Source: Afifellaceae bacterium (lineage in GTDB: Bacteria > Pseudomonadota > Alphaproteobacteria > Rhizobiales > Afifellaceae). From it: 64,000 nt of DNA. The notes under the pieces are model-generated. The model ran no database searches. It had not been told where the DNA came from and was given only the letters and a program-made list of their open reading frames with translations. The stretch is from assembly GCA_028284625.1 (NCBI GenBank), contig JANQRH010000029.1:62001-126000 (forward strand), given 5' to 3'. Every line of letters starts with the position of its first letter. Position 1 is the stretch's first letter. Position numbers and translations under genes: made by a program. Positions 21,725 through 41,082 of this stretch are shown here, piece by piece.

Positions 21725-22501
21725 TCAATCGCCGCCGCGAATGGGCCACTTAGAGAAGTCCTCCAAAAAGCGCGTCAGTTCCTCGACAATGGCTGAGAAG
21801 AAACGCTCGCCTTTTTCGGCGCTTGCAAGCTCCGGGTCACCGAACACGCCGCTCGCCGACAGATCTGCGAAGTCGTTATAGGTTCGGATGGGCGAAGAGC
21901 GTGTCAGGTCGGTGGTCAGATAGGGCGAGCCGGTATCGGGGTAGACGGCCTTGGCTTCATCCATGCCGACGAGCTCGGGCGTCAGATGAAGCAGCAGCGA
22001 GGTTTCCATCTCGCCGGCATGGCCGGTTCCGCCGGGTCTTGAATCGCGCACCGCATCGATCTGCTTGGCGGCCAGCTGAAAATAGGTCAGGCCGGCGATG
22101 GAAGCGCGACCGTAATGCGCCTTGCCCAGCGTCGTGGCCAGAACGTCGAGCGCCGGTCGGTTGCCGCCATGGCCATTGATCATGAGGATGCGACGAAAGC
22201 CGTGCGCGACGGCGCTGCCGACAATGTCACTGACGATCGCCCGCATCGTATCGACGCTTAAGGTCAGGGTGCCGGAGAAGCGCATGTGGTGCTCCGACAC
22301 GCCATACCAGGGCGGCGGCAGAACGAAGGTGTCGCTTCGTTGCTCGGCCGCCGCGTCGCAGACTGCTTTGGCGATCATCGTATCGGTGCCGAGCGGAAGA
22401 TGCGGTCCGTGCTGCTCAACGGCGCCGAGCGGCAGGAGCAGGATTGTTGAGTTCCGATCGAGGGCTGCAACGGTCGGAGAAGTAAGGTGCTCGTAGCGCA
22501 T
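21725..22501 (-). CDS. Creatininase-family amidohydrolase
   Basis: Metal-dependent hydrolase of the creatininase fold, 258 residues. Metal-site motifs are GAVEQHGPHLPLGTD (26-40), NGHGGN and HAGEMETS. The family opens cyclic amides such as creatinine, and includes formamide and sugar-lactam hydrolases. It is the last gene of the leftward operon UbiD, ammonia-lyase, UbiX, creatininase, and so probably hydrolyses an amide or lactam intermediate of that pathway. The start ATG 22501 is 68 bp after the UbiX stop. It converges with the DeoR gene. Confidence 0.87.
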   Translation of the reverse strand: MRYEHLTSPTVAALDRNSTILLLPLGAVEQHGPHLPLGTDTMIAKAVCDAAAEQRSDTFVLPPPWYGVSEHHMRFSGTLTLSVDTMRAIVSDIVGSAVAHGFRRILMINGHGGNRPALDVLATTLGKAHYGRASIAGLTYFQLAAKQIDAVRDSRPGGTGHAGEMETSLLLHLTPELVGMDEAKAVYPDTGSPYLTTDLTRSSPIRTYNDFADLSASGVFGDPELASAEKGERFFSAIVEELTRFLEDFSKWPIRGGD

Positions 22502-22569
22502 GGGCTCAGTTCAACATGAACGTGGCGGCCGCGCCAGATCGTTCGGGCGCTTCGTCGCCGAGCGCGGTA

Positions 22570-23145
22570 TCACGCCTCCTTCCAGCGGCGCACAGGTCCC
22601 GCGTCGATCCCGAACAGGTCGAGCGCCCGAACCGCGGTAAAGGTGACCATATCGTCGATGCTCTCCGGCATGGGATAGAAAGCCGGAACCGGTGGCATGA
22701 CGATCGCGCCGAACTCCGTCACCGTCACCATGTTGCGGCAATGGCCGAGATGAAGCGGTGTTTCGCGAACGAGCAGGACCAGCCGCCGCCGCTCCTTGAG
22801 CGTGACGTCGGCGGCGCGGGCGACGAGCGTTGCGCCGGAGCCCGCCGCGATCTCGCCCAGCGTCTTGGCCGAGCACGGCGCGACGATCATGCCCTCCGTC
22901 CGGAACGATCCGCTGGCGATCGCGGCGGTCACGTCGTCATTGTCATAGGTCTTGTCGGCGAGGGCGGTCACCTCGCGCACCTTCATCGACGATTCGTAGG
23001 CCAGTGCCACCTGCGCCGGCTTGGAGATGATGAGGTGGGTCTCGTAGTCGCTGCTTCGCAGAAGCTGTAGCAGCTTGATGCCATAGACCAGACCGGATGC
23101 GCCGGTCATGGCGATCAAGAGGCGGCGGGGCGTAGCATCCGTCAT
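22570..23145 (-). CDS. UbiX-family flavin prenyltransferase
   Basis: A 191-residue flavoprotein with the UbiX N-terminus LLIAMTGASGLVYGIKLLQLL. The phosphate- and flavin-binding PCSAKTLGEIAAG segment and the C-terminal MVTFTAVRALDLFGID are also typical. UbiX attaches a prenyl group to FMN to make prenylated FMN, the cofactor of UbiD decarboxylases. Its position one gene away from a UbiD-family enzyme (24883-26244) fits a dedicated maturation partner. It starts 55 bp after the ammonia-lyase stop. Confidence 0.9.
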   Translation of the reverse strand: MTDATPRRLLIAMTGASGLVYGIKLLQLLRSSDYETHLIISKPAQVALAYESSMKVREVTALADKTYDNDDVTAAIASGSFRTEGMIVAPCSAKTLGEIAAGSGATLVARAADVTLKERRRLVLLVRETPLHLGHCRNMVTVTEFGAIVMPPVPAFYPMPESIDDMVTFTAVRALDLFGIDAGPVRRWKEA

Positions 23146-23200
23146 GGTGCAGAGGAACTCGTTGGCGCGGCGATTACTGCCTTACGATACAGGACAGGCC

Positions 23201-24832
23201 TTACGCCAGCGATCCCAACTTCTGCTCTACCGCCTCGCGTAGCGCGCCTGCGTCGACCAGCTCGCGCGCCGCAACAAGGTCGGCATGCAGCCAACGGTCG
23301 CCGTCGAGCGCTGCGGGAATGCGTCCCCGGATCGCCTCATAGGCGGCCTGAGTGCCGCCGCCGAGATCGAACGCGCCGAGCGTCTCCTTGGTAACACTCA
23401 GGGCCTGTGCTGCGATCAACAATTCGGTGCCGACGATCTGGCTGACGTTCTCCACAATCGTGCGCGCCTTGCGGGCAGACCAGGTGGAATTGGAGACGTG
23501 GTCCTCCTGGTTGCTTTTCGTGGGAACGGAATCGGTGCCGGCGGGCCAGCACAGCGTCTTATTCTCCGTCACCAGCGCCGCCATGGAGCAATGCGCGATG
23601 GCGTAGCCGTAGTTCACGCCAGTCAGCTTGGCGACGAGGTTGCTGGGCAGGCCATAGGACATTGTCGGGTCGAGCATGCGATAGCTTCGCCGCTCGCTGA
23701 TGCTGCCGACATCCGTCATGACGGCCGCCAAGTGATCCATGACCTGCGCGACGTACTGGCCGTGGAAATTCCCTTGGCTCAGCGCCTCATATCCCCCTTG
23801 GCCGTCTTCAAAGATCAGGGGATTGTCGGTGGCGGCGTTCATCTCCACTTCCAGCACGCGGTCGACGTAGTCGAGTGCGTCGCGCGCCGGTCCGTGGACC
23901 TGCGGTGCGCATCTTAATGAGTAAGCGTCCTGCACGCGCTGCGGGATCGTCTGGTGGGTGACGCTGATATCGTCGGGCAGGCGCACCTGCCTGGCCTCTT
24001 CGGTGCAGCGTTGGCTTCCATCGACGAGGCGGCGCACATTCTCCGCCGTCGCGACCTGCCCGGCATGCGGGCGCGCTTCGTGCACGCGCGGATCAAAGGC
24101 GGCCATCTCGCAGCGCATGGCCTCAAGGCTCAGGGCGAGAGCGATGTCGGCCGACACGAGCACATTGCGCGCCTCTTCGGCGGCAAGAACCGCCACGGCG
24201 AGCGAAACCGTGCTGCCATTGATCAATGCCAAGCCGTCCTTGGCGCGAAGCTCAAACTCAGGCTCCAGCCCAGCGCGCTTCAGCGCGTCCTGCGCCGGCA
24301 GGCGCTCGCCCTTATAAAAGGCCTCCGCGCTGGGATGACCGGTGAGCGTGCCTGTCAGATAGGCGAGGGGGGCAAGGTCGCCGCTCGCGCCGACGGAGCC
24401 GATCTGCGGAATCACCGGATGAACGCCGCGATTGAGCATGGCGAGAAGCCGCTCCACGGTTTCGCGGCGCGGCCCCGAAACGCCGCGAACAAGCGCGTTG
24501 ATGCGAAGCACCAACAGCGCGCGGACGGCGTCCTCCGGAAACGGCTCGCCCACGCCTGCGGAATGCGCGTGCACGAGCATTTTTTGAAAGAGGTCGATAT
24601 GCTCGACGGGGATGTGCGTGTCCTTCAACCGGCCGAGGCCGGTGTTGAATCCGTAGACGGGCTTGGCGCCCTCCTTGAGCCAGTTGGCCTCGATGTAGCT
24701 GCGTGCTGCTTCCAACCTCTCCCAGGCGGACTGCGCCACACTGATCGGCTCGCGACCGTCCTCGTCCAATTGCCGAGCGACGCGCACCAGATCGGCAGCT
24801 TTTAACGAGTGGCCGTCGAGCACGAGGGTCAT
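23201..24832 (-). CDS. Histidine/aromatic amino acid ammonia-lyase (HutH-like)
   Basis: MIO-dependent ammonia-lyase of 543 residues. The MIO-forming tripeptide is ASG at 149-151 (GSVGASGDLAPL), and the catalytic Tyr is Y60 in VYGFNTGLG. At the substrate-selectivity loop it reads LVHAHSAGVG: A89-H90 instead of Ser-His of bacterial histidine lyases, His-Leu of tyrosine lyases or Phe-Leu of phenylalanine lyases. The His makes a histidine-like substrate most plausible. It lies between UbiD and UbiX genes and away from any hut gene, so it is unlikely to be ordinary hutH; ergothionase-type or another histidine-derivative lyase is possible. Confidence 0.85.
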   Translation of the reverse strand: MTLVLDGHSLKAADLVRVARQLDEDGREPISVAQSAWERLEAARSYIEANWLKEGAKPVYGFNTGLGRLKDTHIPVEHIDLFQKMLVHAHSAGVGEPFPEDAVRALLVLRINALVRGVSGPRRETVERLLAMLNRGVHPVIPQIGSVGASGDLAPLAYLTGTLTGHPSAEAFYKGERLPAQDALKRAGLEPEFELRAKDGLALINGSTVSLAVAVLAAEEARNVLVSADIALALSLEAMRCEMAAFDPRVHEARPHAGQVATAENVRRLVDGSQRCTEEARQVRLPDDISVTHQTIPQRVQDAYSLRCAPQVHGPARDALDYVDRVLEVEMNAATDNPLIFEDGQGGYEALSQGNFHGQYVAQVMDHLAAVMTDVGSISERRSYRMLDPTMSYGLPSNLVAKLTGVNYGYAIAHCSMAALVTENKTLCWPAGTDSVPTKSNQEDHVSNSTWSARKARTIVENVSQIVGTELLIAAQALSVTKETLGAFDLGGGTQAAYEAIRGRIPAALDGDRWLHADLVAARELVDAGALREAVEQKLGSLA

Positions 24833-24882
24833 GCTGTTCTCCTTGGTATTGTCATGGGGCCGTTCCGCCCCGAGATGTCGGA

Positions 24883-26244
24883 TCAGTATTTGTCGATGTC
24901 GCGCTTCACGCGTTGCATGAGGTCGTCGGGCGGCTTGGCGAATTCGGAACGGCTGCCGGGCTCGCCGTCACCCGGCCGGGTGGTTGCAACCATGCCCACC
25001 TTGGTGACCGTCCCGTTCTCTTCAAGCGGGTCGCAGCGATCGGCCTTCACGCCCGGCAGGACGATCAGATCCTCATGGCCGCGAAAGCGGGCGGCGAGCG
25101 CCCATTCCACCTGCGTCCAGTCTTCCGGATCGAGGTCGTCGTCGATCACGACGACCAGCTTCAAGAGGTTCACCTGGCCCATGGCCATGAGCACGGCGCG
25201 TTTGCCTTCGCCGCGCTTCGCCTTGTGCATCGTGATGATGGCGTGCAGGCGGCCCATGCCACCGTCGGTGATCACGACCCTGCGGACCGAATGAATGACG
25301 CGGCGGAGCGCCTGGCACACGGTTGCGCCGATAGCGATGCCGCCAAGGAGGCAATGCTCCGACGCGTAGCCGGGCAGGACCGCCTGATAGATCGCGTCTC
25401 GGCGGCGGGTCAGGCATTGCACGTTCACCTCAATGCCGCTGCCATAATAGACGTAGAATCCGGGGAACTCTGAGACGGCGCCCTCATCGATGGAGCGGTC
25501 GGGATGCAGCGTTCCCTCCAGGACGATCTCCGCTTCGGCCGGCACCTCAAGATCGACGGTGGCGCAGCGGGTGAGGCGGAGCGGCTCGCCAAGCAGACTG
25601 CCGGCGATATCGTATTCGTCGTCGCCGAATTCGACATACATCTGCGACGCCAGCAGGACCGCCGGGTGATTGCCGATGGCGATCGCGATCTCCAACGGCC
25701 GGCCGAGTGCCGCAGCCCGATTGGCGAGAATTGTCAGGTGATGGCTGGGTGCAATACCGGCCATCAGCCGGTTGCCGCCTTCAAGCCTGAGGCGAGCGAT
25801 CGATATGTTGCGGCGTCCGGTGTCGGGGTCTTTCGCAACGATCACGCCGGCGGAGATATAGGGGCCGCCCTCCTTCTCAAACCATGTCGGAACCGGCAGA
25901 AGGCAGCCGATATCGAGGTCGTCCTTGATCACCATCTCCGATACCGGCGCCTCGTCGACCAGGACCGGCGGCAAGCGCTTGGCGAGTGCGGCCTGAAGGG
26001 TTTCGTCAAGGTCCTCCGTCGGCACGCCCAGGCCGCGGGCGATCTTCGCCCGCGTGTTCATCACATTGGCGACGACCGGCACATCATGCTCGGCAATTGC
26101 CGCGAAGAGCTGCGCCGGGCCGCGATCGCGCTCGATGAGCACTGCGGCGATCTCATATTCGGCGCTGACAGTGCGGCTTACGACATGGAGGTCGCCGGTC
26201 GCCTTCAGGTCGTCGAGAAAGCCGCGCAGGCTTTGATGGTTCAT
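24883..26244 (-). CDS. UbiD-family prenylated-FMN (de)carboxylase
   Basis: A 453-residue UbiD-fold decarboxylase. The catalytic triad of the family is recognisable: R151 in NISIARLRLEG, and E254/E259 in DEGAVSEFPG, with the usual five-residue spacing. The family reversibly decarboxylates acrylic, aromatic or heteroaromatic acids using prenylated FMN. It is the first gene of an operon with an ammonia-lyase, UbiX and a creatininase-family enzyme. The acrylate formed by a lyase (urocanate-, cinnamate- or coumarate-like) is an obvious candidate substrate. That link is inference. Confidence 0.88.
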   Translation of the reverse strand: MNHQSLRGFLDDLKATGDLHVVSRTVSAEYEIAAVLIERDRGPAQLFAAIAEHDVPVVANVMNTRAKIARGLGVPTEDLDETLQAALAKRLPPVLVDEAPVSEMVIKDDLDIGCLLPVPTWFEKEGGPYISAGVIVAKDPDTGRRNISIARLRLEGGNRLMAGIAPSHHLTILANRAAALGRPLEIAIAIGNHPAVLLASQMYVEFGDDEYDIAGSLLGEPLRLTRCATVDLEVPAEAEIVLEGTLHPDRSIDEGAVSEFPGFYVYYGSGIEVNVQCLTRRRDAIYQAVLPGYASEHCLLGGIAIGATVCQALRRVIHSVRRVVITDGGMGRLHAIITMHKAKRGEGKRAVLMAMGQVNLLKLVVVIDDDLDPEDWTQVEWALAARFRGHEDLIVLPGVKADRCDPLEENGTVTKVGMVATTRPGDGEPGSRSEFAKPPDDLMQRVKRDIDKY

Positions 26245-26314
26245 CGCTGCTTTCCGTGCGGTTGGACGGCAGGGCCGTCCAAGCTCATTGGCCGGCAGAA
26301 TGCAAAGCGATTGT

Positions 26315-27088
26315 TCATGTCCGCAGCGCCGTCTTGGCGTAGCGATCGGCGATGCGGTTCGCGGCGTCCTTGAGACGAGCCAAGATGGTCTCCAACTTGT
26401 CGCCCGGCGAGCGGTGCACTGGGCCTGCGACGTTGAGGCCGGCTACGAACTTTCCGTCCCACAAAAGGATCGGAACGCAGACGGCCCAGGCGTCGGTGTC
26501 AAGCTCGCCGGCGGTTTGCGCGAAGCCTTGCCGCCGGATCTGAGCAAGGTCGCGCCTGATCCGTTCGGGCTCGACAAATTTCGGTTCAGTGAAGACCTTG
26601 AGTTCGCCGCTTAAGACATGCTCCCGCTCATGGCTGCTCATATGGGCCATCACAATCTTGCCGGACGCGCCGGCGTAAAGCGGGAATTGTTCGCCCTTGC
26701 GATACGACAGACGAACGGGCCGCGAGCACTCCACCTGCTCAAAGCAAAGCGCCTGCCAACCTGAGCGGACGGTGACGAAGGTCGTTTCGCCGAGCTCTGC
26801 GACCAGTTCGTGCAACACCGGCAGGCAGGCGTTGGAAAGCTCCACCCGCGTGTCGGCGACCTTGCCGAGCTGAACGAGTTGATAGCCGAGTTCGATATGC
26901 CCCGGCCTTCCGCCGGCGCGCAGGAAGCCACGGTTCCGCAGCACCTTCACCAGGCGGTAGGCCGTGCTGCGTGTCAGGCCGAGCTGATCCATCACACCCG
27001 TCAGCGTAACGCCACCACGTTCAGCGGCGGCGCACATCATGAGGACGTCGAGTCCTCGCTCCAGCGTTTGAAGCGACTTGTCGGCCAT
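26315..27088 (-). CDS. IclR-family transcriptional regulator
   Basis: A 257-residue regulator from ATG 27088 (MADKSLQTLERGLDVLMM). An N-terminal winged helix (VTLTGVMDQLGLTRSTAYRLVKVLRNRGFL) is followed by the IclR effector domain, including YAGASGKIVMAHM and the C-terminal WAVCVPILLWDGKFVAGLNVAGP. Upstream in-frame residues to 27268 overlap the divergent gene and are rejected. It stands between the UbiD operon and the amidohydrolase operon and likely controls both through the palindrome at 27090-27110. Confidence 0.9.
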   Translation of the reverse strand: MADKSLQTLERGLDVLMMCAAAERGGVTLTGVMDQLGLTRSTAYRLVKVLRNRGFLRAGGRPGHIELGYQLVQLGKVADTRVELSNACLPVLHELVAELGETTFVTVRSGWQALCFEQVECSRPVRLSYRKGEQFPLYAGASGKIVMAHMSSHEREHVLSGELKVFTEPKFVEPERIRRDLAQIRRQGFAQTAGELDTDAWAVCVPILLWDGKFVAGLNVAGPVHRSPGDKLETILARLKDAANRIADRYAKTALRT

Positions 27089-27089
27089 A

Positions 27090-27110
27090 ACTATATTTGT
27101 CCTATATAGT
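27090..27110. promoter_or_regulatory. Candidate IclR operator
   Basis: A perfect 7-bp inverted repeat ACTATAT-N7-ATATAGT begins 2 bp from the IclR start codon. It overlaps the divergent promoter zone of the amidohydrolase operon. AT-rich palindromes next to iclR-type genes are typical of autoregulatory operators. Confidence 0.5.
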
Positions 27111-27135
27111 GAGAATATTCGGATTGATCTCCTTA

Positions 27136-27141
27136 TATAAT
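27136..27141 (+). promoter_or_regulatory. Candidate -10 box of the amidohydrolase operon
   Basis: TATAAT occurs here, ending 5 bp before the ATG at 27147. If used, transcription would begin at about the start codon, giving a leaderless mRNA, or translation would begin further in (GTG 27168). No convincing -35 box is visible at the standard spacing, so the promoter may need an activator. Confidence 0.35.
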
Positions 27142-27146
27142 GGGAT

Positions 27147-28562
27147 ATGGTTTGGCACAATCGGTTTGTGCAAGCATCAGGAACGGCCCCGTTGGCGGAG
27201 TTCGAGACGGTTATTCGCGGCGATGTCGTCGTTCCGGAACGGGTCATCCCCGGCGCCAGCATCGGCATCTCCGACGGCCGAATCTCAAAAATCTCAGCAA
27301 GTGAAACGTTGACCGGGCACCGCGTGGTCGACGCGACGGATTGCTATGTGCTGCCTGGCGCCGTTGACGGCCAGGTTCACGCCTACTCTCAAGCGGATCG
27401 TGAAGGGATCATCATTGCAACGCGGGCGGCCGCGGCCGGGGGTGTCACGACGATCGTGGACATGCCCTATGACGAACCCCAGCCCATCAACAACGCCGAA
27501 CTCTTTCGTCGCAAAGTGGAGGTCGTCGGCGAGGAAGCTCACGTTGACGTTGCGCTATACGCCACCATGGCGAAGGAGGGCGGGGTCGCCGATCTGAAGC
27601 CGCTGATCGAGGCGGGCGCCTGCGCCTTCAAGTTCTCAATGTGCGAGAGCCATCCGATCCGGTTTCCGCGCATTGCGATGGGCGACATGCTCGACGCCTT
27701 TACGACCGTAGCGCCCTCCGGCCTTGCCTGCGGCGTGCATAACGAGAACCAGGAAATCGTCGACACCTGCATCGCGCGGCTCTCCAAGGAGATGCCCAAC
27801 GATCCGCGTGTTCATGGTCTCAGCCGGCCGCCGGTTTCGGAGAGCATGGCGATCGGAGAGGTGTACGAGCTTGGGCTTGCGAGCGGGTGCCGCGCCCATA
27901 TCGTTCATTGCTCCATCGGGCACGGCATCGATCTGTGCACCTACTACAAGGGGCGCGGCGCCAAAGCGAGCATCGAGGTCTGCCTGCATTATCTGGTCTT
28001 CAATGAAGACGAGCTTCTCACCCAAGGTGCAAAAGCCAAGATCAACCCGCCGCTTCGCCCGCAGGCTGAGGTGGAGCGGCTGTGGGATTGCCTGCGCGCC
28101 GGCGAGATCGATTTCGTGTCCACTGACCACGTCGCGTGGAGCCTGGACCACAAGAGCAATCCGGAATTCTTGAAGAACAAATCCGGCGTGCCGGGGCTGG
28201 AAGCGCTCGTGCCGGTCTTCTTCACCGAATGCGTCAAGCGCGGATTTGAGATCACCACGATTGCTCGGATGCTGTCGGAGCAGCCAGCCAAGCACTTCCT
28301 GCTTTATCCGCAAAAAGGTGCGATCCACGTGGGCTCCGACGCCGATTTGATCATCCTGGAGAAGTCGGAGGGCACGATCGACAGCGCGCGCTGGCAAAGC
28401 GCGGCGGAGTGGAGCCCCTATGACGGCCGCCAAGTCTTGGGTCGCGTGGCGGCCACTTATGTTCGCGGTGTCGAAGTGTGGGACGGTTCATCGATCAAAG
28501 TGGAGCCGGGCTTCGGCCGTTTCCTTCGTCCCAATCGAGAGGGGGCATCCCATGCCGCCTAA
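27147..28562 (+). CDS. Cyclic amidohydrolase (allantoinase/dihydropyrimidinase-like) with altered metal site
   Basis: A 471-residue TIM-barrel amidohydrolase expected to open a hydantoin, dihydropyrimidine or allantoin-like ring. Metal-site residues are K162 (carbamylated Lys in FKFS), H198, H254 in HIVHCS, and D327 in VSTDH. The first motif, normally HxH, reads DGQVH: Gln76 replaces the first His. Apart from this the fold looks intact, so the metal site may be mononuclear or altered. The first codon is ATG 27147 or possibly GTG 27168. It overlaps the downstream N-carbamoyl amidohydrolase gene by 11 bp, so both ring opening and decarbamoylation are encoded together. Confidence 0.85.
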   Translation: MVWHNRFVQASGTAPLAEFETVIRGDVVVPERVIPGASIGISDGRISKISASETLTGHRVVDATDCYVLPGAVDGQVHAYSQADREGIIIATRAAAAGGVTTIVDMPYDEPQPINNAELFRRKVEVVGEEAHVDVALYATMAKEGGVADLKPLIEAGACAFKFSMCESHPIRFPRIAMGDMLDAFTTVAPSGLACGVHNENQEIVDTCIARLSKEMPNDPRVHGLSRPPVSESMAIGEVYELGLASGCRAHIVHCSIGHGIDLCTYYKGRGAKASIEVCLHYLVFNEDELLTQGAKAKINPPLRPQAEVERLWDCLRAGEIDFVSTDHVAWSLDHKSNPEFLKNKSGVPGLEALVPVFFTECVKRGFEITTIARMLSEQPAKHFLLYPQKGAIHVGSDADLIILEKSEGTIDSARWQSAAEWSPYDGRQVLGRVAATYVRGVEVWDGSSIKVEPGFGRFLRPNREGASHAA

Positions 28563-29841
28563 GCCGCAGGTCAATTCGGAGCGGCTTTGGCGCGGGATCG
28601 AAGACCTCGCGAAACTCACCGATGGCGAAAAGCCTTTCACCCGCCGGGCGTTCTCCGACCTTTATCTCGAAGGCCGCCGTTATTTGGCGGAGCGGTTCGA
28701 CGAAGCCGGATTGTCCGTGACGCGTGACACGGCAGGCAATCTGGTCGGGCGGCGCGCCGGCACCGAACAAGGACTGGGCTCCGTCGCCGTGGGGTCGCAT
28801 TCCGACACCGTGCCGGCCGGCGGTCGGTTCGACGGCATCGTCGGCGTTCTGGCCGGGCTGGAGATCGCCGAGACGTTGAGCGATGCCGGCATGAAGCTGC
28901 GGCATCCTTTCGAAGTCATCGATTTCTTGGCCGAGGAGCCGAGCCCTTACGGACTGTCCTGCATCGGAAGCCGTGCTGTTTCAGGTGGGCTCTCCGCTGA
29001 CCTTCTGGCCCAGCAAGGCCCGGACGGCAGCACGCTAAAGGATGGAATTGCCAGGGTCGGCGGCGATCCTGATCGGCTGGGCGATAGTCTGCGGTCTGCG
29101 CAGGATATCGCCTGCTTCCTTGAAGTTCATATCGAACAAGGCCCGGTGCTGGAATCGACGGGCGTGCCGATTGGCGTGGTGACCGACATTGCCGGCATCA
29201 CGCGTGTGGAGATCGTCGTTCGCGGCCGCGCCGCGCATTCGGGAACGACGCCGATGACGATGCGCAGCGATGCGCTCGTCGCTGCTTCGGAGATCGTGTT
29301 GTGGGTTGCCCGACAGGCAACCGAATGGGCGGAAACCAAACCGGGCTTCGTCGCAACGATCGGCAGGCAGATCGTGGAGCCGAACGGCGCCAATGTCGTT
29401 GCCGGCCGGGTGACCATGACGCTGGAGATCCGCTCCGGTTCCGACAAAGCACGCAGCGATTTTCTGGCGGAGACGGAAGCTTATGCCCGCGGCCTTGCCG
29501 GCAAGGCGGGCCTTGAAATCGACATGTGCCCGATCAGCGAAAGCGGCGCGGCGGCATGCGACAACACAGTGATTGAGACGCTGAGCGAGGCCTGCAGGTC
29601 GGCCGGCGTCAACTTTCGAATGATGTCCAGCGGCGCCGGGCACGATACCGCGCACATGGCGCGTGTTGTGCCGTCTGGGATGATCTTCATCCCGTGCCGC
29701 GACGGGCGAAGCCATTGCCCCGAAGAATGGGCGGACCGGGATCACGTGGCATGCGGAGCGCAGGTTCTGTGCGACGCGGTGATCCTTCACGACGCGACTG
29801 CCGAAACAAACACACGGTCCGCCTCAGCAATGTTGGCGTAG
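28552..29841 (+). CDS. M20 Zn-dependent N-carbamoyl amino acid amidohydrolase
   Basis: A 429-residue peptidase M20-family amidase, of the group with N-carbamoyl-L-amino acid hydrolase, allantoate amidohydrolase and beta-ureidopropionase. Metal motifs are GSHSDTVPAGGRFDG, EEPSPYG, HIEQGPVLE and the late GRSHCPEEWAD; the dimerisation/substrate motif is GRAAHSGTTPM. ATG 28552 follows AGAGGGGG and overlaps the upstream gene by 11 bp. It would remove the carbamoyl group (CO2 + NH3) after hydantoin ring opening. The EEPSPYG block differs from the usual EEGSRF, which may affect substrate choice. Confidence 0.88.
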   Translation: MPPKPQVNSERLWRGIEDLAKLTDGEKPFTRRAFSDLYLEGRRYLAERFDEAGLSVTRDTAGNLVGRRAGTEQGLGSVAVGSHSDTVPAGGRFDGIVGVLAGLEIAETLSDAGMKLRHPFEVIDFLAEEPSPYGLSCIGSRAVSGGLSADLLAQQGPDGSTLKDGIARVGGDPDRLGDSLRSAQDIACFLEVHIEQGPVLESTGVPIGVVTDIAGITRVEIVVRGRAAHSGTTPMTMRSDALVAASEIVLWVARQATEWAETKPGFVATIGRQIVEPNGANVVAGRVTMTLEIRSGSDKARSDFLAETEAYARGLAGKAGLEIDMCPISESGAAACDNTVIETLSEACRSAGVNFRMMSSGAGHDTAHMARVVPSGMIFIPCRDGRSHCPEEWADRDHVACGAQVLCDAVILHDATAETNTRSASAMLA

Positions 29842-29890
29842 TAGGCGCCGGGTCGTGCCACCGATCCGGCGGGTTATAGGAGGGAGAAAG

Positions 29891-31078: not shown

Positions 31079-31098
31079 TTGCACGCTGGCGATCGTGG

Positions 31099-31126
31099 CC
31101 GCCGGCGCCGTTTCGGGTGCCGGCGG
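31099..31126 (+). terminator. Stem-loop after LivJ-like gene
   Basis: An 11-bp stem CCGCCGGCGCC / GGTGCCGGCGG (one G-T pair) with a 6-nt loop lies 21 bp past the stop. There is no U-tract. It probably limits read-through or stabilises the binding-protein mRNA. Confidence 0.6.
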
Positions 31127-31170
31127 TCGATTGCTGCAACCGCTTGGTTTGAGGGAAAGGACAATTGGGA

Positions 31171-31614: not shown

Positions 31615-31643
31615 GCGCGAATTCCAGAAGAGGACAAATAGCA

Positions 31644-32156
31644 ATGACCTGGCGTGACGTATTGACGACCATCCAGACCGCCGCGGCTGACATCCAAAAG
31701 GCGCCGCCCGACGACATGCTGCGCCTGTTCCATCACCAGGTCGTGCCGAGCGGGGCTGGCAACAACGCCCAATGCTTCACGACATGGTATTTCGGCGGCG
31801 CGGATATTCGCTATCTCGGCGCTTACACCTATCAGATCGTGAAGCTCGCCGGCGATTCCTCCTTCACGGTGGATCAGCTGAAGACGATGTTTAAGGAGTT
31901 CGTCCCCCAGCCATCGGAGTTCGTGGCCTATTGCGGCGTGCGGACGCAGTGGGAGTACGTTCAGGACATCGTCCGGGTTCTCCCGGAGATCGACGATCGC
32001 GACGACCTTCTGGCGCTGCTCAATGCTTTTCTGAGCTACGCTGCCAGCCTCAATGGCTGGGTCTACCATTACATGAAGTGGGAGATCAGTGGGCTCTATC
32101 AGCATAAGATGCCGGAAGACATCGAGGAGATGTCGCGGCTTTCAAAAGCCTCCTGA
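31644..32156 (+). CDS. Small helical protein of unknown function in liv-type operon
   Basis: A 170-residue protein, predicted soluble and largely helical, with no signal peptide; AGAAGAGGA precedes ATG 31644. Notable segments are FTVDQLKTMFKEF, PSEFVAYCGV and the aromatic NGWVYHYMKW near residue 145. These faintly recall the helical-bundle domain of cucumopine-synthase-related proteins, which act on histidine-derived opines; this is not verified. It sits 29 bp after the other small protein and 49 bp before livH. The pair may be two subunits of one enzyme. Confidence 0.7.
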   Translation: MTWRDVLTTIQTAAADIQKAPPDDMLRLFHHQVVPSGAGNNAQCFTTWYFGGADIRYLGAYTYQIVKLAGDSSFTVDQLKTMFKEFVPQPSEFVAYCGVRTQWEYVQDIVRVLPEIDDRDDLLALLNAFLSYAASLNGWVYHYMKWEISGLYQHKMPEDIEEMSRLSKAS

Positions 32157-32205
32157 CGGGCGGGCGTCTCGCCAGGCTAGCCATGTGTGGGAACTGGAGG
32201 CCTGA

Positions 32206-33081
32206 ATGGCTTATGTGATCGAGCAGCTGATCAACGGTCTGGCGGTCGGCAGCGTCTACGCTTTGATCGCTGTCGGCTATTCCATGGTCTACAGCATTCT
32301 CTATCTGATCAACTTCGCCCATGGCGATGTGATCACCTTCGGCGCCTTCACCGCGCTCACCATGTTGGTGATCGGCGTGCCGATACCGGTGGCGTTGTTC
32401 CTGGCATGCGTGCTTGGCGCAGCACTTGGCATGACGGTGGAGAGGATCGCCTATAGACCGGTGCGATATGCCAACCGTATCGTCCCAATGATCAGCGCGT
32501 TGGGCGCCGGGCTTGTCATCGCCTCCACCGCGCAGGCGATCTGGGGGCCGGAGGTCCACGCCTTCCCGCAGGTTATTCCGCGCTGGTCGTTTGAGCTCTT
32601 CGGGCAGCTCATTCCGTTCCAGCCGCTGATCATTATCGCGATCGCGGTGGTGCTGGTGACGATCGCTACCATCCTGCTTGACTATACGCGGCTTGGACGC
32701 GCGACGAAGTGCGTCTGTCAGGACATCCACGCCGCTCAGCTGATGGGTATTCCCATCAACACCATCGTGCCGCTCGTCTATGCGATCGGCGGCTTTCTCG
32801 GCGTGGCGGGTGCTGTTCTCTACGTCACCTACTTCAACGCCGTCTACATCCAGATGGGCCTTCTGGCGACCTTCAAGGCGTGGTCGGCGGCCATGCTGGG
32901 TGGCGTGGGCAATTTTCACGGTGCCTTTGTGGGTGGCCTCCTGCTCGGCATTGCCGAGGCGTTCTCAGTTGTCGTGGTGGGGTCGGCGTTCAAGGATGGC
33001 GTCAGCTTGGTGTTCATCGTCCTGATCCTGCTTCTGAAGCCGGACGGGCTGTTCGGCGAGCGAACGACAGCCAGATCATGA
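32206..33081 (+). CDS. livH: Branched-chain-type ABC permease LivH
   Basis: A 291-residue permease of the LivH type: N-terminal INGLAVGSVYALIAVGYSMVYSILYLINFAHGD and C-terminal LLKPDGLFGE are family hallmarks. TGGAGG lies upstream of ATG 32206. Its stop overlaps the livM start as ATGA (33078-33081). With LivM it forms the membrane channel of the importer whose binding protein is 29891-31078. Symbol given for the family; the substrate is unlikely to be plain leucine in this setting. Confidence 0.92.
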   Translation: MAYVIEQLINGLAVGSVYALIAVGYSMVYSILYLINFAHGDVITFGAFTALTMLVIGVPIPVALFLACVLGAALGMTVERIAYRPVRYANRIVPMISALGAGLVIASTAQAIWGPEVHAFPQVIPRWSFELFGQLIPFQPLIIIAIAVVLVTIATILLDYTRLGRATKCVCQDIHAAQLMGIPINTIVPLVYAIGGFLGVAGAVLYVTYFNAVYIQMGLLATFKAWSAAMLGGVGNFHGAFVGGLLLGIAEAFSVVVVGSAFKDGVSLVFIVLILLLKPDGLFGERTTARS

Positions 33082-34118: not shown

Positions 34119-34126
34119 GCTTCGTC

Positions 34127-34900
34127 GTGGCGCTCTTCCAAGCCACAGACATCACGCGGCGCTTTGCCGGCGTCGTTGCGGTGGACGGCGTGTCGCTCCA
34201 GGTCGACGAGGGTGAGATCCTCGGCCTGATGGGCCCCAATGGCAGCGGCAAGACGACCTTCATCAATTGCGTCAGCGGCGTTGACCAGGCGAACTCAGGC
34301 CGGGTCATGTTCGATGGCAGCGACATTACGAAGATGAAGCCGTTCCGCGTGGCTGAACGCGGCATTGGCCGAACGTTTCAGAACCTCCGGCTCTTTGAAA
34401 ACATGACGACCACCGAGAACGTCATGTGCGGCGGCCATTTGCGGCAGAACACCGGGCTGGTCGGTGCGCTGCTTCCCTCTCGCTCACGGCAGCAGCGCAA
34501 TGCTGAGGAACGTGAGCGCGCCGTCTCGCTTCTGCGTGAGGTGGGGCTGGAGGATCGCATCGATCAATATGCGACGGATCTCTCCTACGGCCAGACCAAG
34601 AGGCTGGAGCTCGCCCGCGCGCTCAACATCGAGCCGCGGCTCTTGCTGCTGGACGAACCGACCGCCGGCATGAACGATCGCCAGGCGGCAGAGATTTTGG
34701 GATTGGTGCGGCGCATTCAGCGTGACCGCGGCATCGCCATGATCGTGATTGAGCACAACGTGCCGGCGCTGGTTTGGCTGGCCGATCGCATTGCCGTTTT
34801 GGAGGCGGGGCGGGTCCTGGTTGAGGATGAGCCAGAGATTGTGGCGCGCCATCCTGACGTCATTCGCGCGTATCTCGGCGAGGAGGCGCTTGACGAATGA
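34127..34900 (+). CDS. livG: Branched-chain-type ABC ATP-binding protein LivG
   Basis: A 257-residue ATPase starting at GTG 34127. Walker A GPNGSGKTT (near 39-47), signature LSYGQ, Walker B LLLLDEPTAGM and the H-loop in VIEHNV identify LivG. It overlaps livF by 4 bp (ATGA). It energises the LivHM channel together with LivF. Confidence 0.93.
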   Translation: MALFQATDITRRFAGVVAVDGVSLQVDEGEILGLMGPNGSGKTTFINCVSGVDQANSGRVMFDGSDITKMKPFRVAERGIGRTFQNLRLFENMTTTENVMCGGHLRQNTGLVGALLPSRSRQQRNAEERERAVSLLREVGLEDRIDQYATDLSYGQTKRLELARALNIEPRLLLLDEPTAGMNDRQAAEILGLVRRIQRDRGIAMIVIEHNVPALVWLADRIAVLEAGRVLVEDEPEIVARHPDVIRAYLGEEALDE

Positions 34901-36428: not shown

Positions 36429-36437
36429 GAGTGCTTA

Positions 36438-37178
36438 GTGGACGATCCTCCCGAAAATCCGCTCGCCGGCAGGATTGCTTTGGTCACCGGTTCGGCGGAG
36501 CGTGTCGGTAAAGTCGTCGCTCTGGCGCTGGCGCAAGCGGGCGCCGACATCATCGTCAATCACCTTGATCGCAAGGACGCGGCCGAGGCCACAGTCGCGG
36601 AGATCGAGGCTCTGGGACGCCGCGCCATCGCCGTGGAAGCCGATGTCAGCAATCCGAGCCATGTGGAACGGATGATGGCGGCGGCGGAGTCGTTCGGCGG
36701 ATTGCACATCCTGGTCAACAGCGCGTCGAACTTCGTGACCGCCCCGTTCGACGAGCTCAGTCATGATGACTGGCGGGCGTCCTTGTCGGTGATCCTGACC
36801 GGTGCGTTCTTGTGCACGCAGCGGTCCGCGCGGCTTATGCGCGACGGCGGCAAGATCATCAATGTCATCGGCATCTCGGCCACCGAGAACTGGCCCGACT
36901 ATGTTTCCCACAGCGTCGCCAAAGCGGGGCTTGTGAAGCTCACTGAAGTGACAGCGGTTGCTTTGGGGCCGGGCATCCAGGTCAATGGAATTTCCCCCGG
37001 AACGCTGCTGATCAACGAGGGCGACGCCCACGGCTCAGTCGAACTGCCCGATCTCGGCGGGCTGATGCCGCGCGGAACGGCGGAGGACCTCGCCGCACTC
37101 GTCGTCGCGCTCTGCAGCTCAGGCGACTATCTCACCGGCGCGATCATTCCCCTCGATGGCGGGCGCCGCCTCGTCTGA
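36438..37178 (+). CDS. SDR-family protein lacking the catalytic tyrosine
   Basis: A 246-residue Rossmann protein of the SDR type from GTG 36438. It has a dinucleotide motif (TGSAERVG, 17-24), an NNAG-equivalent reading NSASN and a C-terminal YLTGAIIPLDGG. The active-site motif reads HSVAK (158-162), so His replaces the usual Tyr of YxxxK; a Tyr lies three residues earlier (Y155). It may be a partner subunit of the preceding SDR, a pteridine-reductase-like variant, or use different chemistry. It is the last gene of the rightward operon. Confidence 0.85.
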   Translation: MDDPPENPLAGRIALVTGSAERVGKVVALALAQAGADIIVNHLDRKDAAEATVAEIEALGRRAIAVEADVSNPSHVERMMAAAESFGGLHILVNSASNFVTAPFDELSHDDWRASLSVILTGAFLCTQRSARLMRDGGKIINVIGISATENWPDYVSHSVAKAGLVKLTEVTAVALGPGIQVNGISPGTLLINEGDAHGSVELPDLGGLMPRGTAEDLAALVVALCSSGDYLTGAIIPLDGGRRLV

Positions 37179-37189
37179 ACCGAGCGTTT

Positions 37190-38191
37190 CTATCGGAAGG
37201 CAGGGATGATCGTCTCGCCATATTCGGCGATGATCTGTTCCTCCTTGCCGCTGTCGAGATAGATGTTGAACTGCGTGATCCCGACCTCCTTGAGCTTGCG
37301 CAGCTTTTCGATGTGCTCCTCCGCTTCGCCCAGTACGGAAAAGGCATCGATGATCTCGTCGGTGATGAAGTCGAGATAGGGGTTATCGCTCTGGCCATGC
37401 TTGGAATAGTCGTAGCCTTTGCGGTCCTTGATGTAGGCGGTCAGCGACGGCGGGATGTCCTCGCGGTCGGTGCCGTAGCGCTCAACGATATCGGCGACAT
37501 GATTGCCCACCATGGCGGGGAACCAGCGCGTCGCCTCGCGCGCCGCCGCACGGTCGCCCAGAAATGCGGGCGCGGCCGCCATGATCTTGTAATTGGACAT
37601 GTCGCGACCGGCCGCTTTGCCTGCCGCGATGGCCTGGTCGCCCAGCCATTTGCAGATCGCGGGCTCGGCGATCTGAAGGATCAAACCGTCCCCGACCTTT
37701 CCAGCGGATGTCAGCGCTTTGGGCCCATAGGCCGCCACCCAGACCGGTAGCTCGTAACCCACCGCCCACGGGAACTGCACCGGATTCGGACAATCGCCGT
37801 ATTGCGCTTCATCGCCGCGCACGAGCGCCTTCACGACGTGGGTGAATTCTTCCAGCCGTGCAAGTGGTGCCGGCTTTTTGCCCATGACGCGCACAGCGCT
37901 GTCGCCGCGCCCTAGCCCGATGTCGAAGCGGCCGCCGGATTGCTTGGCGAGCGAGCCGAAGAGCGAGGCCGCCGCCGACCAGTCCCGCGTGTTGGGGTTG
38001 GTCACGCAGGGGCCGAAGCGCATCGTCTTGGTGTGCTCCATACACATCGCCATGGCCGGGAACGATTCCCGCCACAGGATGTGACTGTCGTAGAACCAGC
38101 AATAGGCAAAGCCTGCATGCTCTGCCAGCCGCACAAGGGCACGCGCGCGATCGGGTTCGACGAAACCCTTAAAGCAGATAGCGAATTCCAT
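37190..38191 (-). CDS. LLM-class flavin/F420-dependent oxidoreductase
   Basis: A 333-residue luciferase-like monooxygenase-fold protein. The sequence FGPCVTNPNTRDWSAAASLFGSLAKQSGGRFDIGLGRGDSAVR is characteristic of the F420-dependent reductase side of the family (Mer-like; I recall a subgroup annotated after Colwellia CPS_4354). It is encoded on the same strand as, and downstream of, an F420:NADP-type reductase (38367-39035), and convergent with the catabolic operon, ending 11 bp from it. It probably reduces or oxidises an intermediate using F420H2 or FMN. F420 use is inferred, not shown. Confidence 0.82.
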   Translation of the reverse strand: MEFAICFKGFVEPDRARALVRLAEHAGFAYCWFYDSHILWRESFPAMAMCMEHTKTMRFGPCVTNPNTRDWSAAASLFGSLAKQSGGRFDIGLGRGDSAVRVMGKKPAPLARLEEFTHVVKALVRGDEAQYGDCPNPVQFPWAVGYELPVWVAAYGPKALTSAGKVGDGLILQIAEPAICKWLGDQAIAAGKAAGRDMSNYKIMAAAPAFLGDRAAAREATRWFPAMVGNHVADIVERYGTDREDIPPSLTAYIKDRKGYDYSKHGQSDNPYLDFITDEIIDAFSVLGEAEEHIEKLRKLKEVGITQFNIYLDSGKEEQIIAEYGETIIPAFR

Positions 38192-38276
38192 AATGTCCTC
38201 CTGTTACGGCGTGCTCCGGCTAAACGATAGAGCGTTAAGGCGATTCAGTGAAACGCGAAAACGCTCAGAGCCCTAT

Positions 38277-38367
38277 CCATTCTGACCCGATCAGAATGGA
38301 GGCTCTATCTCTTTTGCGGAGCATGACCTTATCCGAAAAACCGGTCTCCACTTTCGGGATCATGCTC
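38277..38367. repeat. Rhizobial-type intergenic palindromic element, copy 1
   Basis: Two nested palindromes: CCATTCTGA-N5-TCAGAATGG (38277-38299) and GAGCATGA ... TCATGCTC (38319-38367) with a CGAAAAACCGGT...ACTTTCGGG core. This arrangement matches a dispersed intergenic element common in Hyphomicrobiales. It touches the last base of the F420:NADP reductase stop and may also act as a transcriptional terminator. A second copy, inverted, is at 42222-42331. Confidence 0.75.
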
Positions 38368-39035
38368 TAATGGTCGGGTGCCCAGATGCGAATGCCCGCA
38401 TGCGAGAAGGGCACGGCCTTTGAGATGTTGATGCGAATGAGGATGGGCGTGATCGCTTCAATACAGCGCGCCGATTGGGCGTCGCCGGCATTATAGGCTT
38501 CGACCCCGAGTTTGCGCACCAGATCGATCACCTTCTTGCGGGCATCGAGACTATTGCCGCATACGAGCACGTCGCAATTGATGTCCCAGTCAAGCGTGTT
38601 CAGCGTGTGCGCGGAGACGTTGTGGAGCGCTCCAATCACAGGGACGTCGGGCCCGACGATCGCCTGCGCTGCCTCCGTGGCGGAACCTTCAGGCGGCATG
38701 TCGACCTTCTTGGGGTCGTTCTCAGACAGCGGCACTACGATGTCGACCAGGATCTTGCCGGCGAGCCGGTCCTTGATAGCCTGCAGCGTCTTGTTGTGAC
38801 CGGACCAGGGCACGGCGAGGATGACCAGCTCATCGGCCGCATCGACGGCATCATCATTGCCGAGGCCGGTGATGTCGGCGGCGCCATCGGGGAGCTTCGC
38901 TTTGAGCTCGTCGACAATCTGGGCGGCACGTGCGGCGTCGCGCGAGCCGAGCGCCACCGGTACGCCCGCACGGGCAAACCGAAGGGCCAAGCCCTGGCCT
39001 TGCGGTCCGGTGCCGCCGAGAATTGCGATGGTCAT
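38367..39035 (-). CDS. NADPH:F420 reductase-like (Fno/NpdG family)
   Basis: A 222-residue Rossmann protein from ATG 39035 (AGGAGG upstream). The N-terminus [23 protein letters not shown] and the later [18 protein letters not shown] and [14 protein letters not shown] are close to F420-dependent NADP reductases, which pass hydride between NADPH and coenzyme F420. It is paired with the LLM enzyme 37190-38191, as expected if it regenerates F420H2. F420 biosynthesis genes are not in the window; without them the protein could be an NADP-only relative. Confidence 0.82.
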
Positions 39036-40827: not shown

Positions 40828-41082
40828 CGCATTGGCCTCGCACGCAAAGATGCTGTGACCGCCGACGATATCGCGAACCGGGCCTTGGAGGCCAGCGCAG
40901 CGTTGAAAGCATCTCAGAGTGTCGACCGACTGGAATCGGGGAGGGAGGAACGGTATGACGCTTCGGGCGTTGAGTGCCCCGGGCGGCCAGTCTTTCGGAC
41001 TGTCGGGCCTGCCAATGCGCGCTGAAGCCATCGCACGATGACGAGGGCCGCGCGCCAACATCCGAAGGGGGCGTTCCAGGGC

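What the first reader, a model, noticed from the sequence alone, without database searches (positions are those of the whole stretch)
21725..39035. Candidate new catabolic system: ammonia-lyase + UbiD/UbiX + cyclic amidohydrolase/carbamoylase + F420-type redox pair + dedicated importer
Around one IclR regulator the window encodes a MIO ammonia-lyase, a prenyl-FMN decarboxylase with its UbiX, a creatininase-family hydrolase, a hydantoinase-like ring opener, an N-carbamoyl amidase, a LivJHMGF importer, two unknown small proteins, two SDRs, an LLM reductase and an Fno-like reductase. Each family is known, but I do not know this combination as a described pathway. A plausible scheme is import of a histidine-like or hydantoin-bearing amino acid derivative, deamination, decarboxylation and/or reduction, ring opening and decarbamoylation. 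Ergothioneine breakdown also joins a HutH-like lyase to hydantoin hydrolysis, but its other enzymes (a urocanase-like hydratase and a desulfhydrase) are not visible here.
Basis: partly seen in the sequence, partly recalled or inferred. Interest (0 to 1): 0.85.

Follow-up and report, generated by a model that had tools for sequence, protein, structure and literature searches.

The report
Histidine-type catabolic cluster using a UbiD
A bacterium of the Afifellaceae kind carries a conserved set of genes that seems to import a histidine-like compound and break it down to glutamate by an unusual route, in which an enzyme with a prenylated flavin stands where related gene sets have two other enzymes.

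Summary
All genes described are present and belong to one system. Lyase, UbiD, hydantoinase-type (ErtD-like) and carbamoylase-type (ErtE-like) genes recur together in Alphaproteobacteria and in Spirochaetaceae, Chloroflexota and Trueperaceae MAGs. The window's ErtE-like protein passes NCBI's N-carbamoyl-glutamate hydrolase model of ergothioneine use; its ErtD-like protein just misses its model. The two 'unknown small proteins' are halves of a cucumopine-synthase/Pictet-Spenglerase enzyme; fused versions sit beside hutH on Ri/Ti plasmids. The genome has no urocanase and no HutI over cut-off. Near the ErtE of 37 Hyphomicrobiales genomes, UbiD/UbiX (8) and hydratase + desulfurase (25) never co-occurred; 4 had neither. 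But 16 of 70 UbiD loci from all taxa have both, and 12 of 70 have lyase + UbiD without ErtD/ErtE. Best reading: import, release of a histidine-type amino acid, deamination, UbiD step, ring opening, decarbamoylation, glutamate. Substrate and UbiD reaction are unproven. Creatininase and the F420 pair were seen with the core only in this genus.

The parts
21725..22501 (-). creatininase-family cyclic amidohydrolase (accessory; seen with the core only in this genus)
   Evidence: PF02633 257 bits; MftE and creatininase models below cut-off; 95% identical in G398; in 1 of 70 UbiD loci, L083
22570..23145 (-). UbiX flavin prenyltransferase (makes prFMN for UbiD)
   Evidence: NF004685 244 > 188, TIGR00421 233 > 109; a UbiX at 36 of 70 UbiD loci
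23201..24832 (-). MIO histidine-type ammonia-lyase (core); the only Lyase_aromatic match in the genome
   Evidence: TIGR01225 540.9 > 539.15; single hit in genome; all 11 HutH active-site positions conserved (numbering recalled)
24883..26244 (-). UbiD-family prFMN enzyme (core), HmfF-like
   Evidence: TIGR00148 305 > 245; closest solved structure 6h6v, 297 bits, 359 with a profile; that this entry is HmfF is recalled
26315..27088 (-). IclR-family regulator (frame open to 27268; likely start 27088)
   Evidence: PF01614, PF09339; start codons
27089..27146 (.). short region between IclR and the + strand operon, with imperfect palindromes; a possible operator
   Evidence: consensus and repeat matches only
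27147..28562 (+). hydantoinase-type amidohydrolase, ErtD-like (core); exact start unsure (27147, 27168 or 27192)
   Evidence: NF058538 hydantoin-5-propionate amidohydrolase 588 vs cut-off 600; starts
28552..29841 (+). M20-type N-carbamoyl-L-glutamate amidohydrolase, ErtE-like (core)
   Evidence: NF058540 580 > 520; start
29855..31078 (+). LivJ-type substrate-binding protein
   Evidence: PF13458 187 bits
31171..31614 (+). split Pictet-Spenglerase half A (DUF3830, cyclophilin-like domain), P0001
   Evidence: phmmer to 9uwa 1.5e-7 and 9ns6 7e-6; tblastn to DUF3830 proteins of Ri/Ti plasmids
31644..32156 (+). split Pictet-Spenglerase half B (Cucumopine_C helical bundle), P0002
   Evidence: PF18631 88 > 27; phmmer to 3x27 cucumopine synthase 7e-20
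32206..33081 (+). LivH permease
   Evidence: PF02653
33078..34118 (+). LivM permease (start 33078 likely)
   Evidence: PF02653; start
34127..34900 (+). LivG ATPase
   Evidence: PF00005, PF12399
34897..35661 (+). LivF ATPase
   Evidence: PF00005
35658..36428 (+). SDR 1 (overlaps LivF by 4 bases; accessory)
   Evidence: PF13561; 87% in G398
36438..37178 (+). SDR 2 (accessory)
   Evidence: PF13561; 90% in G398
37190..38191 (-). LLM-class F420-dependent oxidoreductase, convergent neighbour (membership uncertain)
   Evidence: TIGR03842 501 > 295; 97% in G398
38367..39035 (-). NADPH-dependent F420 reductase npdG, neighbour (membership uncertain)
   Evidence: TIGR01915 192 > 150; genome encodes cofC, cofD and cofE over cut-off

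Best explanation
A catabolic gene cluster for a histidine-type compound. LivJHMGF imports it (inferred). The split cucumopine-synthase-type pair probably frees a histidine-type amino acid from a Pictet-Spengler-like adduct, that is, runs the cucumopine synthase reaction backwards (inferred). The MIO lyase removes ammonia to give a urocanate-type acrylate (supported by active-site residues). The UbiD enzyme, with prenyl-FMN from UbiX, acts next on that acid and leads to a hydantoin- or imidazolone-type propionate (inferred; it sits where the ergothioneine pathway has thiourocanate hydratase plus thiohydantoin desulfurase). The ErtD-like enzyme opens the ring and the ErtE-like enzyme removes the carbamoyl (or similar) group, giving L-glutamate (supported by family models). 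IclR controls the divergent operons (inferred).
For: ErtE over its model cut-off, ErtD near. HutH residues conserved in the window lyase and 14 other full-length cluster lyases, two of them with ACG for ASG. Core genes linked across phyla. Split PS pair by sequence to solved enzymes; the same fold beside hutH on two cucumopine-type plasmids and near lyase-UbiD-ErtD clusters of G657, G718 and L093. No urocanase in this genus and HutI not over cut-off; 7 of 51 genomes tested that hold this UbiD lack urocanase, two of them isolates. Near the over-cut-off ErtE of 37 genomes of the order: UbiD + UbiX without HutU/desulfurase 8, the reverse 25, both 0, neither 4; naive P of no overlap 1.3e-5, ignoring relatedness. 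In the ErtD tree five UbiD-only loci nest among hydratase-type loci; 13 label changes in all.
Against: Among 70 UbiD loci from all taxa, 16 also have a HutU-like and/or desulfurase gene, 12 of these without any lyase found (one of the 16, L122, is a canonical hut operon). 12 of 70 have a lyase and UbiD but no ErtD/ErtE hit in the stretch (eight with an L099-type lyase, plus L096, L109, L114, L130), and 11 have neither. G718 and G660 carry the hydratase/desulfurase pair at a separate locus of the same genome. The window's ErtD misses its cut-off, and ErtD/ErtE of its lyase-relatives L093 and L084 are far below theirs, so their ring substrate may differ. Known UbiD enzymes decarboxylate; no extra carboxylate is evident in the proposed substrate. 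PS genes were found at 6 of 74 UbiD loci only, two of these the same genus.
Confidence: 0.45

Rival explanations
1. UbiD is an ordinary decarboxylase: the substrate is a histidine-type amino acid with an extra carboxylate on or next to the ring, removed by UbiD after (or before) the lyase; the hydration step is done by canonical urocanase where one exists, and by an unrecognised enzyme where none does.
For: UbiD is closest to a five-ring heteroaromatic acid decarboxylase (that 6h6v is HmfF is recalled) and invariant R and E positions are kept in the alignment. Eight loci pair UbiD with an L099-type lyase without ErtD/ErtE, and three of these genomes that were tested (L099, L102, L108) have a urocanase. 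In HutU + desulfurase loci UbiD is an added step.
Against: Leaves hydration without an enzyme in the 7 genomes with no urocanase; one search lists no other enzyme family shared across the lyase + UbiD + ErtD/E loci. The lyase pocket is that of plain HutH.
Confidence: 0.35
2. A cucumopine/mikimopine-type opine catabolic locus: retro-Pictet-Spengler to histidine + 2-oxoglutarate, then histidine breakdown, with creatininase opening the opine lactam.
For: Cucumopine_C/DUF3830 genes beside hutH on pRi2659 and A. vitis pAvCG412, and two cucumopine-like genes beside a lyase in G480.
Against: The plasmid loci carry Hut genes and HyuA (HyuB on pRi2659); no HutU, HutG, HutF, HyuA or HyuB hit in window 11001-45000 and no urocanase in the genome. 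PS genes were found at only 3 of the 70 UbiD loci. Identity to plasmid proteins is 23-30%.
Confidence: 0.25
3. A sulfur-free branch of the ergothioneine pathway: the substrate is 2-oxohistidine (or, with the ergothionase-like lyases, its betaine), needing only hydration before ErtD.
For: ErtD of UbiD-only loci G657 (735) and L088 (783) pass the hydantoin-5-propionate model and UbiD-only ErtD nest among thio-pathway ErtD; no desulfurase at the 8 UbiD-type loci; the L095 lyase is closest to ergothionase among solved structures.
Against: No direct evidence for 2-oxohistidine; does not explain the PS pair; L093 and L084 ErtD do not fit the model.
Confidence: 0.25
4. Two unrelated operons that happen to share a regulator region.
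For: Divergent arrangement; accessory genes differ between taxa.
Against: In L084, L093, G657 and G660 the same core genes lie together on one strand.
Confidence: 0.04

Closest known systems
Ergothioneine utilisation pathway (ergothionase, thiourocanate hydratase, thiohydantoin desulfurase, ErtD, ErtE)
   Same: HAL-fold lyase, hydantoin-5-propionate-type and N-carbamoyl-glutamate hydrolases; end product glutamate
   Different: MIO lyase instead of ergothionase; UbiD/UbiX in place of hydratase + desulfurase; PS pair
Cucumopine-type Ri/Ti plasmid regions with hut genes (pRi2659, pAvCG412)
   Same: cucumopine-synthase-like protein beside a histidine lyase and an ABC importer
   Different: fused not split; canonical hut genes and HyuA; no UbiD, ErtD or ErtE hit in the stretches
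Canonical Hut pathway
   Same: histidine-type ammonia-lyase, end product glutamate
   Different: no HutU in the genome and no HutI over cut-off
HmfF and other UbiD decarboxylases
   Same: family, prFMN partner UbiX
   Different: the Arg that (from recall) binds the second carboxylate in HmfF is not kept; genomic context is imidazole/hydantoin catabolism
Pictet-Spenglerases and cucumopine synthase of the Cucumopine_C family (PDB 9ns6, 9uwa, 9k0a, 3x27)
   Same: two-domain enzyme by sequence
   Different: two separate genes in an operon with an importer
Thiourocanate desulfhydrase of gut anaerobes (Feng et al. 2025, known only from a passage in PMC13405746)
   Same: acts on thiourocanate, the acid made by ergothionase
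   Different: not compared: its sequence and family were not seen

Membership tests
Ergothioneine utilisation | N-carbamoyl-L-glutamate hydrolase ErtE (NF058540) | tested here: met
   580 > 520 bits
Ergothioneine utilisation | hydantoin-5-propionate amidohydrolase ErtD (NF058538) | tested here: not met
   588 vs 600 bits, narrowly below
Ergothioneine utilisation | thiourocanate hydratase (urocanase family) | tested here: not met
   no PF01175 match in G000
Ergothioneine utilisation | thiohydantoin desulfurase in the locus | tested here: not met
   no DUF917 hit in window 11001-45000; three PF06032 genes elsewhere on contig C12, not typed further
Ergothioneine utilisation | ergothionase without MIO tripeptide | tested here: not met
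   window lyase has ASG
Canonical Hut pathway | HutH equivalog (TIGR01225) | tested here: met
   540.9 > 539.15
Canonical Hut pathway | HutU and HutI | tested here: not met
   (best HutI score in G000 31 bits, cut-off 298)
Canonical Hut pathway | HutG/HutF elsewhere in the genome | not tested
   only window 11001-45000 was searched, no hit
Cucumopine synthase / Pictet-Spenglerase family | Cucumopine_C helical bundle domain | tested here: met
   PF18631 88 > 27
Cucumopine synthase / Pictet-Spenglerase family | second (DUF3830, cyclophilin-like) domain | tested here: met
   no Pfam hit, but phmmer 1.5e-7 to 9uwa
Cucumopine synthase / Pictet-Spenglerase family | forward or reverse Pictet-Spengler activity | not testable with these tools
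   needs enzyme assay
UbiD decarboxylases | family model and UbiX partner | tested here: met
   TIGR00148 305 > 245; UbiX two genes downstream on the same strand
UbiD decarboxylases | decarboxylase activity | not testable with these tools
   needs assay with prFMN
F420-dependent LLM redox pair | LLM and npdG models, F420 biosynthesis genes in the genome | tested here: met
F420-dependent LLM redox pair | role in this pathway | tested here: inconclusive
   adjacent in both genomes of the genus; no hit at 70 UbiD loci, of which L083 is cut before the place where they lie

The most novel reading that the evidence does not exclude
The UbiD of these clusters is not a decarboxylase but a prenyl-FMN-dependent hydratase of urocanate-type acids. 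It forms a covalent prFMN adduct with the imidazole-acrylate, much as urocanase does with NAD+ (recalled), and so replaces urocanase (and, where C2 already carries oxygen, makes the desulfurase needless). Lyase, UbiD, ErtD and ErtE would then be a complete urocanase-free route from a histidine-type amino acid to glutamate.
Probability: 0.16. Interest if true: 0.88.

Novelty: new variant of a known kind. Interest (0 to 1): 0.6.

Why it matters
It would give the UbiD family a place in amino-acid and imidazole catabolism, define a urocanase-free branch of histidine-type breakdown, and tie cucumopine-synthase-like proteins to catabolic clusters outside the plant-tumour plasmids. It makes a testable claim about what a prFMN enzyme does next to a histidine-type lyase.

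Tried and rejected
Rejected: 'two unrelated operons' (synteny). Not counted as core: creatininase, LLM, npdG (no hit at UbiD loci outside the genus) and the SDRs (weak hits only). Rejected: furan-2,5-dicarboxylate decarboxylase identity, because the Arg recalled as binding the second carboxylate of HmfF is not conserved. Considered and left open, without evidence: N-methylhistidines, hercynine and ergothioneine sulfonate as substrates.

Led nowhere: literature. UbiD + histidine ammonia-lyase + hydantoinase gave 0 papers, urocanate + prenylated FMN 0, Pictet-Spenglerase + cucumopine 0. Only listings were seen. Passages were seen of PMC10745273, PMC8554961, PMC13405746, PMC7653990 and PMC6733357; no paper was read whole. 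Hooykaas 2022 on pAtAg67 is not held. Feng et al. 2025 (thiourocanate desulfhydrase) is known only from a passage; I did not check whether that enzyme is UbiD-like, so part of the UbiD question may already be answered in a paper I did not see. The 13 other lyase relatives of 47-57% identity show no UbiD nearby (three of them on contigs of about 8 kb), so lyase identity alone does not predict the cluster. The L095 and L099 lyases match no ergothionase-named model in NCBIfam.

Limits: the 71-locus set was picked by two UbiD peptide patterns, flanks are at most 10 kb and many contigs end early, so neighbour counts are lower bounds. One search took 46 of the 71 loci, chosen by me, plus 5 handles; completeness is not told for the genomes reached through loci, and one of its 44 matches (L147) is a short piece at a contig end. 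In one search, G706 (6 kb contig), G642 and G686 (17 kb) and G289 (20.8 kb) were seen in part only; G225 and G289 were cut by contig ends. The ErtD tree was the quick kind with long branches flagged.


Full report
WHAT IS THERE. The window lies at G000:C14:62001-126000 of a 3.92 Mb genome rated 100% complete. The nearest named genome found is an Afifellaceae MAG (PL25a_bin.15, L083; its contig has the length of the G398 contig), so the host is an Afifellaceae or close relative. The minus-strand genes IclR-UbiD-lyase-UbiX-creatininase and the plus-strand genes ErtD-ErtE-LivJ-P0001-P0002-LivH-LivM-LivG-LivF-SDR-SDR diverge from a short region at about 27089-27146 with imperfect palindromes. LivG/LivF and LivF/SDR1 overlap by four bases.

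IDENTITIES. Lyase: the only Lyase_aromatic match of the genome, TIGR01225 just over cut-off, MIO motif ASG. The eleven positions that (numbering recalled) make the P. putida HutH site are all kept in it and in 14 other full-length cluster lyases, two of which have ACG; the partial L093 and the divergent L096 do not show the full set. ErtE passes NF058540; ErtD misses NF058538 by 12 bits. UbiD passes TIGR00148; the closest solved structure is 6h6v/6h6x, which I recall as HmfF. P0002 is Cucumopine_C; P0001 and P0002 align with the two domains of solved Pictet-Spenglerase/cucumopine synthase proteins, so the pair is a split version. The genome has cofC, cofD and cofE over cut-off, so it can probably make F420, and the LLM/npdG assignment holds.

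ONE SYSTEM. G398 keeps the whole block. A lyase query over 397 genomes of the order gave 17 others with full-length 47-57% homologues, the next listed matches being at 45% or less; 4 of those 17 (G602, G657, G718, G660) have lyase-ErtE-ErtD-UbiX-UbiD together, and 2 of them also Cucumopine_C genes. A scan of named genomes with the UbiD alignment gave 71 loci. At 70 of these (L083-L152; the fragment L153 left out) there are hits to ErtE in 45, ErtD in 43, one or the other in 47, UbiX in 36, an ICL/PEP-mutase-like protein in 23, HutU in 16, DUF917 in 14, PS genes in 3 (L083, L093, L116). An earlier clustering of 74 loci (these 70, the window, G602, G657, G718) gave ErtE 49, ErtD 45, UbiX 39, HutH-like lyase 18 (including the canonical L122 and the divergent L096) and a separate family of weak, L099-type lyases in 10. 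Two distant UbiD loci (L148, L149; 31-33% identity) have no ErtD, ErtE or lyase. The core is found outside Proteobacteria in L084 (Chloroflexota: ErtE, UbiD, lyase 65%, ErtD in a row), L093 (Spirochaetaceae: lyase 73% over the part present, ErtD, two cycA/cycB pairs, ABC, UbiX, ErtE, UbiD) and L098 (Trueperaceae: lyase 68%); all three are MAGs.

NO UROCANASE. PF01175 is absent from G000 and G398, and HutI is not over cut-off in either. Of 51 genomes tested that hold this UbiD (46 of the 71 loci, chosen by me, plus 5 handles), 44 have a urocanase match and 7 do not: G000, the Afifellaceae MAG, three other MAGs (L088, L093, L151) and two isolates, Devosia enhydra and Devosia sp. Root685.

ALTERNATIVE MODULES. 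The ErtE model NF058540 was over cut-off in 11 of 398 genomes of the phylum. Of these 11 (10 fetched plus the window), 4 have lyase + ErtD + ErtE + DUF917 + HutU without UbiD, 2 have lyase + UbiD + UbiX + ErtD + ErtE without HutU/DUF917, and 5 have none of ErtD, HutU, DUF917, UbiD in the stretch. In the order, 37 of 397 were over cut-off: 25 have HutU and DUF917 and no UbiD, 8 have UbiD + UbiX and no HutU/DUF917, 4 neither, 0 both in the fetched stretch; the two samples share seven genomes. Chance of no overlap, treating genomes as independent (they are not), is 1.3e-5. In Pandoraea L136 the HutU-like and DUF917 proteins pass the NCBI models for thiourocanate hydratase (1034 > 930) and thiohydantoin desulfurase (589 > 440), which identifies that module as ergothioneine-type. 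Of the 25 hydratase-type loci, 18 gave a lyase with a readable motif, CAD, AAD, TAD or TGD, none ASG or ACG; 4 had a lyase hit without a readable motif and 3 (G642, G706, G710) no lyase hit. Of the 8 UbiD-type loci, 6 have ASG or ACG and 2 (G331, G480) ASD; an ASD-type lyase (L095) is closest to ergothionase among solved structures. In an ErtD tree five UbiD-only loci (L088, L089, L095, G331, G480) fall inside a hydratase-type clade, with 13 label changes in all, so the modules have probably been swapped more than once. ErtD of UbiD-only loci G657 and L088 pass the hydantoin-5-propionate model (735, 783; cut-off 600), but those of L093 and L084 give no match at E 1e-100 and their ErtE score 392 and 407 (cut-off 520).

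AGAINST A SIMPLE SWAP. Outside the order sample, UbiD and HutU and/or DUF917 do occur together, at 16 of 70 loci; one (L122) is a canonical hut operon, 3 others have a HutH-like lyase (L110, L135, L145), and 12 show no lyase in the stretch. In G718 and G660 the hydratase/desulfurase pair exists at a separate locus of the same genome; in G718 a shorter ErtE-like match lies beside it. Twelve of 70 loci have a lyase and UbiD but no ErtD/ErtE: eight with an L099-type lyase, and L096, L109, L114, L130; in L109 only a 43-residue ErtD match remains. Eleven of 70 show neither lyase nor ErtD/ErtE, several on short contigs. So UbiD is tied to lyases somewhat independently of ErtD/ErtE.

PICTET-SPENGLERASE LINK. 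On pRi2659 and pAvCG412 a fused DUF3830 + Cucumopine_C protein lies next to hutH in a region with hutC, hutG/I (hutU listed on the first only), HyuA and ABC importers, and a second cucumopine-like gene; that cucumopine catabolism is placed on such plasmids I take from passages of PMC10745273. PF18631 was found in 1 of 398 genomes of the phylum, the window's own, and in 4 of 199 relatives. Among the 74 UbiD loci it is present in the window, L083, L093, L116, G657 and G718. A retro-Pictet-Spengler role is an inference.

MECHANISM. Shown: families, synteny, residues, absence of urocanase. Inferred: import, adduct cleavage, deamination to a urocanate-type acid, UbiD conversion, ring opening, decarbamoylation to glutamate. 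The UbiD reaction is the open question. Decarboxylation is what the family is known for, but one search lists no other enzyme family shared across the lyase + UbiD + ErtD/E loci that could hydrate the ring, which is why a prFMN hydratase is offered as the novel case.

VERDICT. Real, conserved, and a new variant of a known kind (ergothioneine-type and cucumopine-type catabolism), with one step that could be new enzymology. No held paper named the combination in the searches made, but a thiourocanate desulfhydrase paper that I did not see may bear on it.

Noticed in passing
L005 9370-12372 (Paraburkholderia phenoliruptrix symbiotic plasmid): A fused Pictet-Spenglerase-like gene directly follows an ATP phosphoribosyltransferase regulatory subunit gene and hisG, with hisC and an MFS transporter nearby: might be a histidine-derived opine or rhizopine biosynthesis locus on a nodulation plasmid.
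   Followed up: no
L136 2160-11338 and L115, L152 (Pandoraea): HutU-like and DUF917 genes (thiourocanate hydratase and thiohydantoin desulfurase by model in L136), ErtD, ErtE and UbiD together with no lyase hit within the fetched stretch.
   Followed up: partly
L099, L102, L103, L104, L106, L107, L108, L120: UbiD with a distinct weak lyase (L099 type, no ASG at the motif place in the sequences printed for L099 and L102) and no ErtD/ErtE hit in the stretch.
   Followed up: partly
L109, L114, L130 (Rhizobium leguminosarum group): Lyase, UbiD, UbiX and the ICL-like gene are kept but ErtE was not found, and in L109 only a 43-residue ErtD match remains: the lower half seems lost or moved.
   Followed up: partly
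L015 7271-8275 (G398, between lyase and UbiX): An extra open frame of 334 aa sits between lyase and UbiX in the same-genus genome but not in the window; not identified.
   Followed up: no
L056/L057, G584 contig C1 about 1238000-1242000: A 54% lyase homologue sits beside frames that look like an amidase and an AtzH/SnoaL-type protein (by eye only): another context for this lyase clade.
   Followed up: no
L109, L111-L114, L117, L118, L121-L123, L125-L131 and others: Rhizobium/Devosia-type clusters carry a conserved PEP-mutase/methylisocitrate-lyase-like protein and a dipeptide-type binding protein in the same run (ICL-like hit at 23 of 70 loci); its role is unknown.
   Followed up: partly
L138, L140, L110, L145: Loci that add an FAD-linked oxidase (Pfam for L138) and an aminotransferase-like gene (by eye) near the lyase, as if feeding a hydroxy- or keto-acid analogue into it.
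   Followed up: no
L007 11473-13514 (Nonomuraea gerenzanensis): A fused Pictet-Spenglerase-like protein beside frames that look like an FAD-dependent oxidoreductase and a P450 (by eye); no features are listed there in the collection's table.
   Followed up: no
window 41038-42222 and 42985-44214: Another amidohydrolase near the cluster, 97% identical and also near it in G398, and an alpha/beta-hydrolase fused to an OsmC domain.
   Followed up: no
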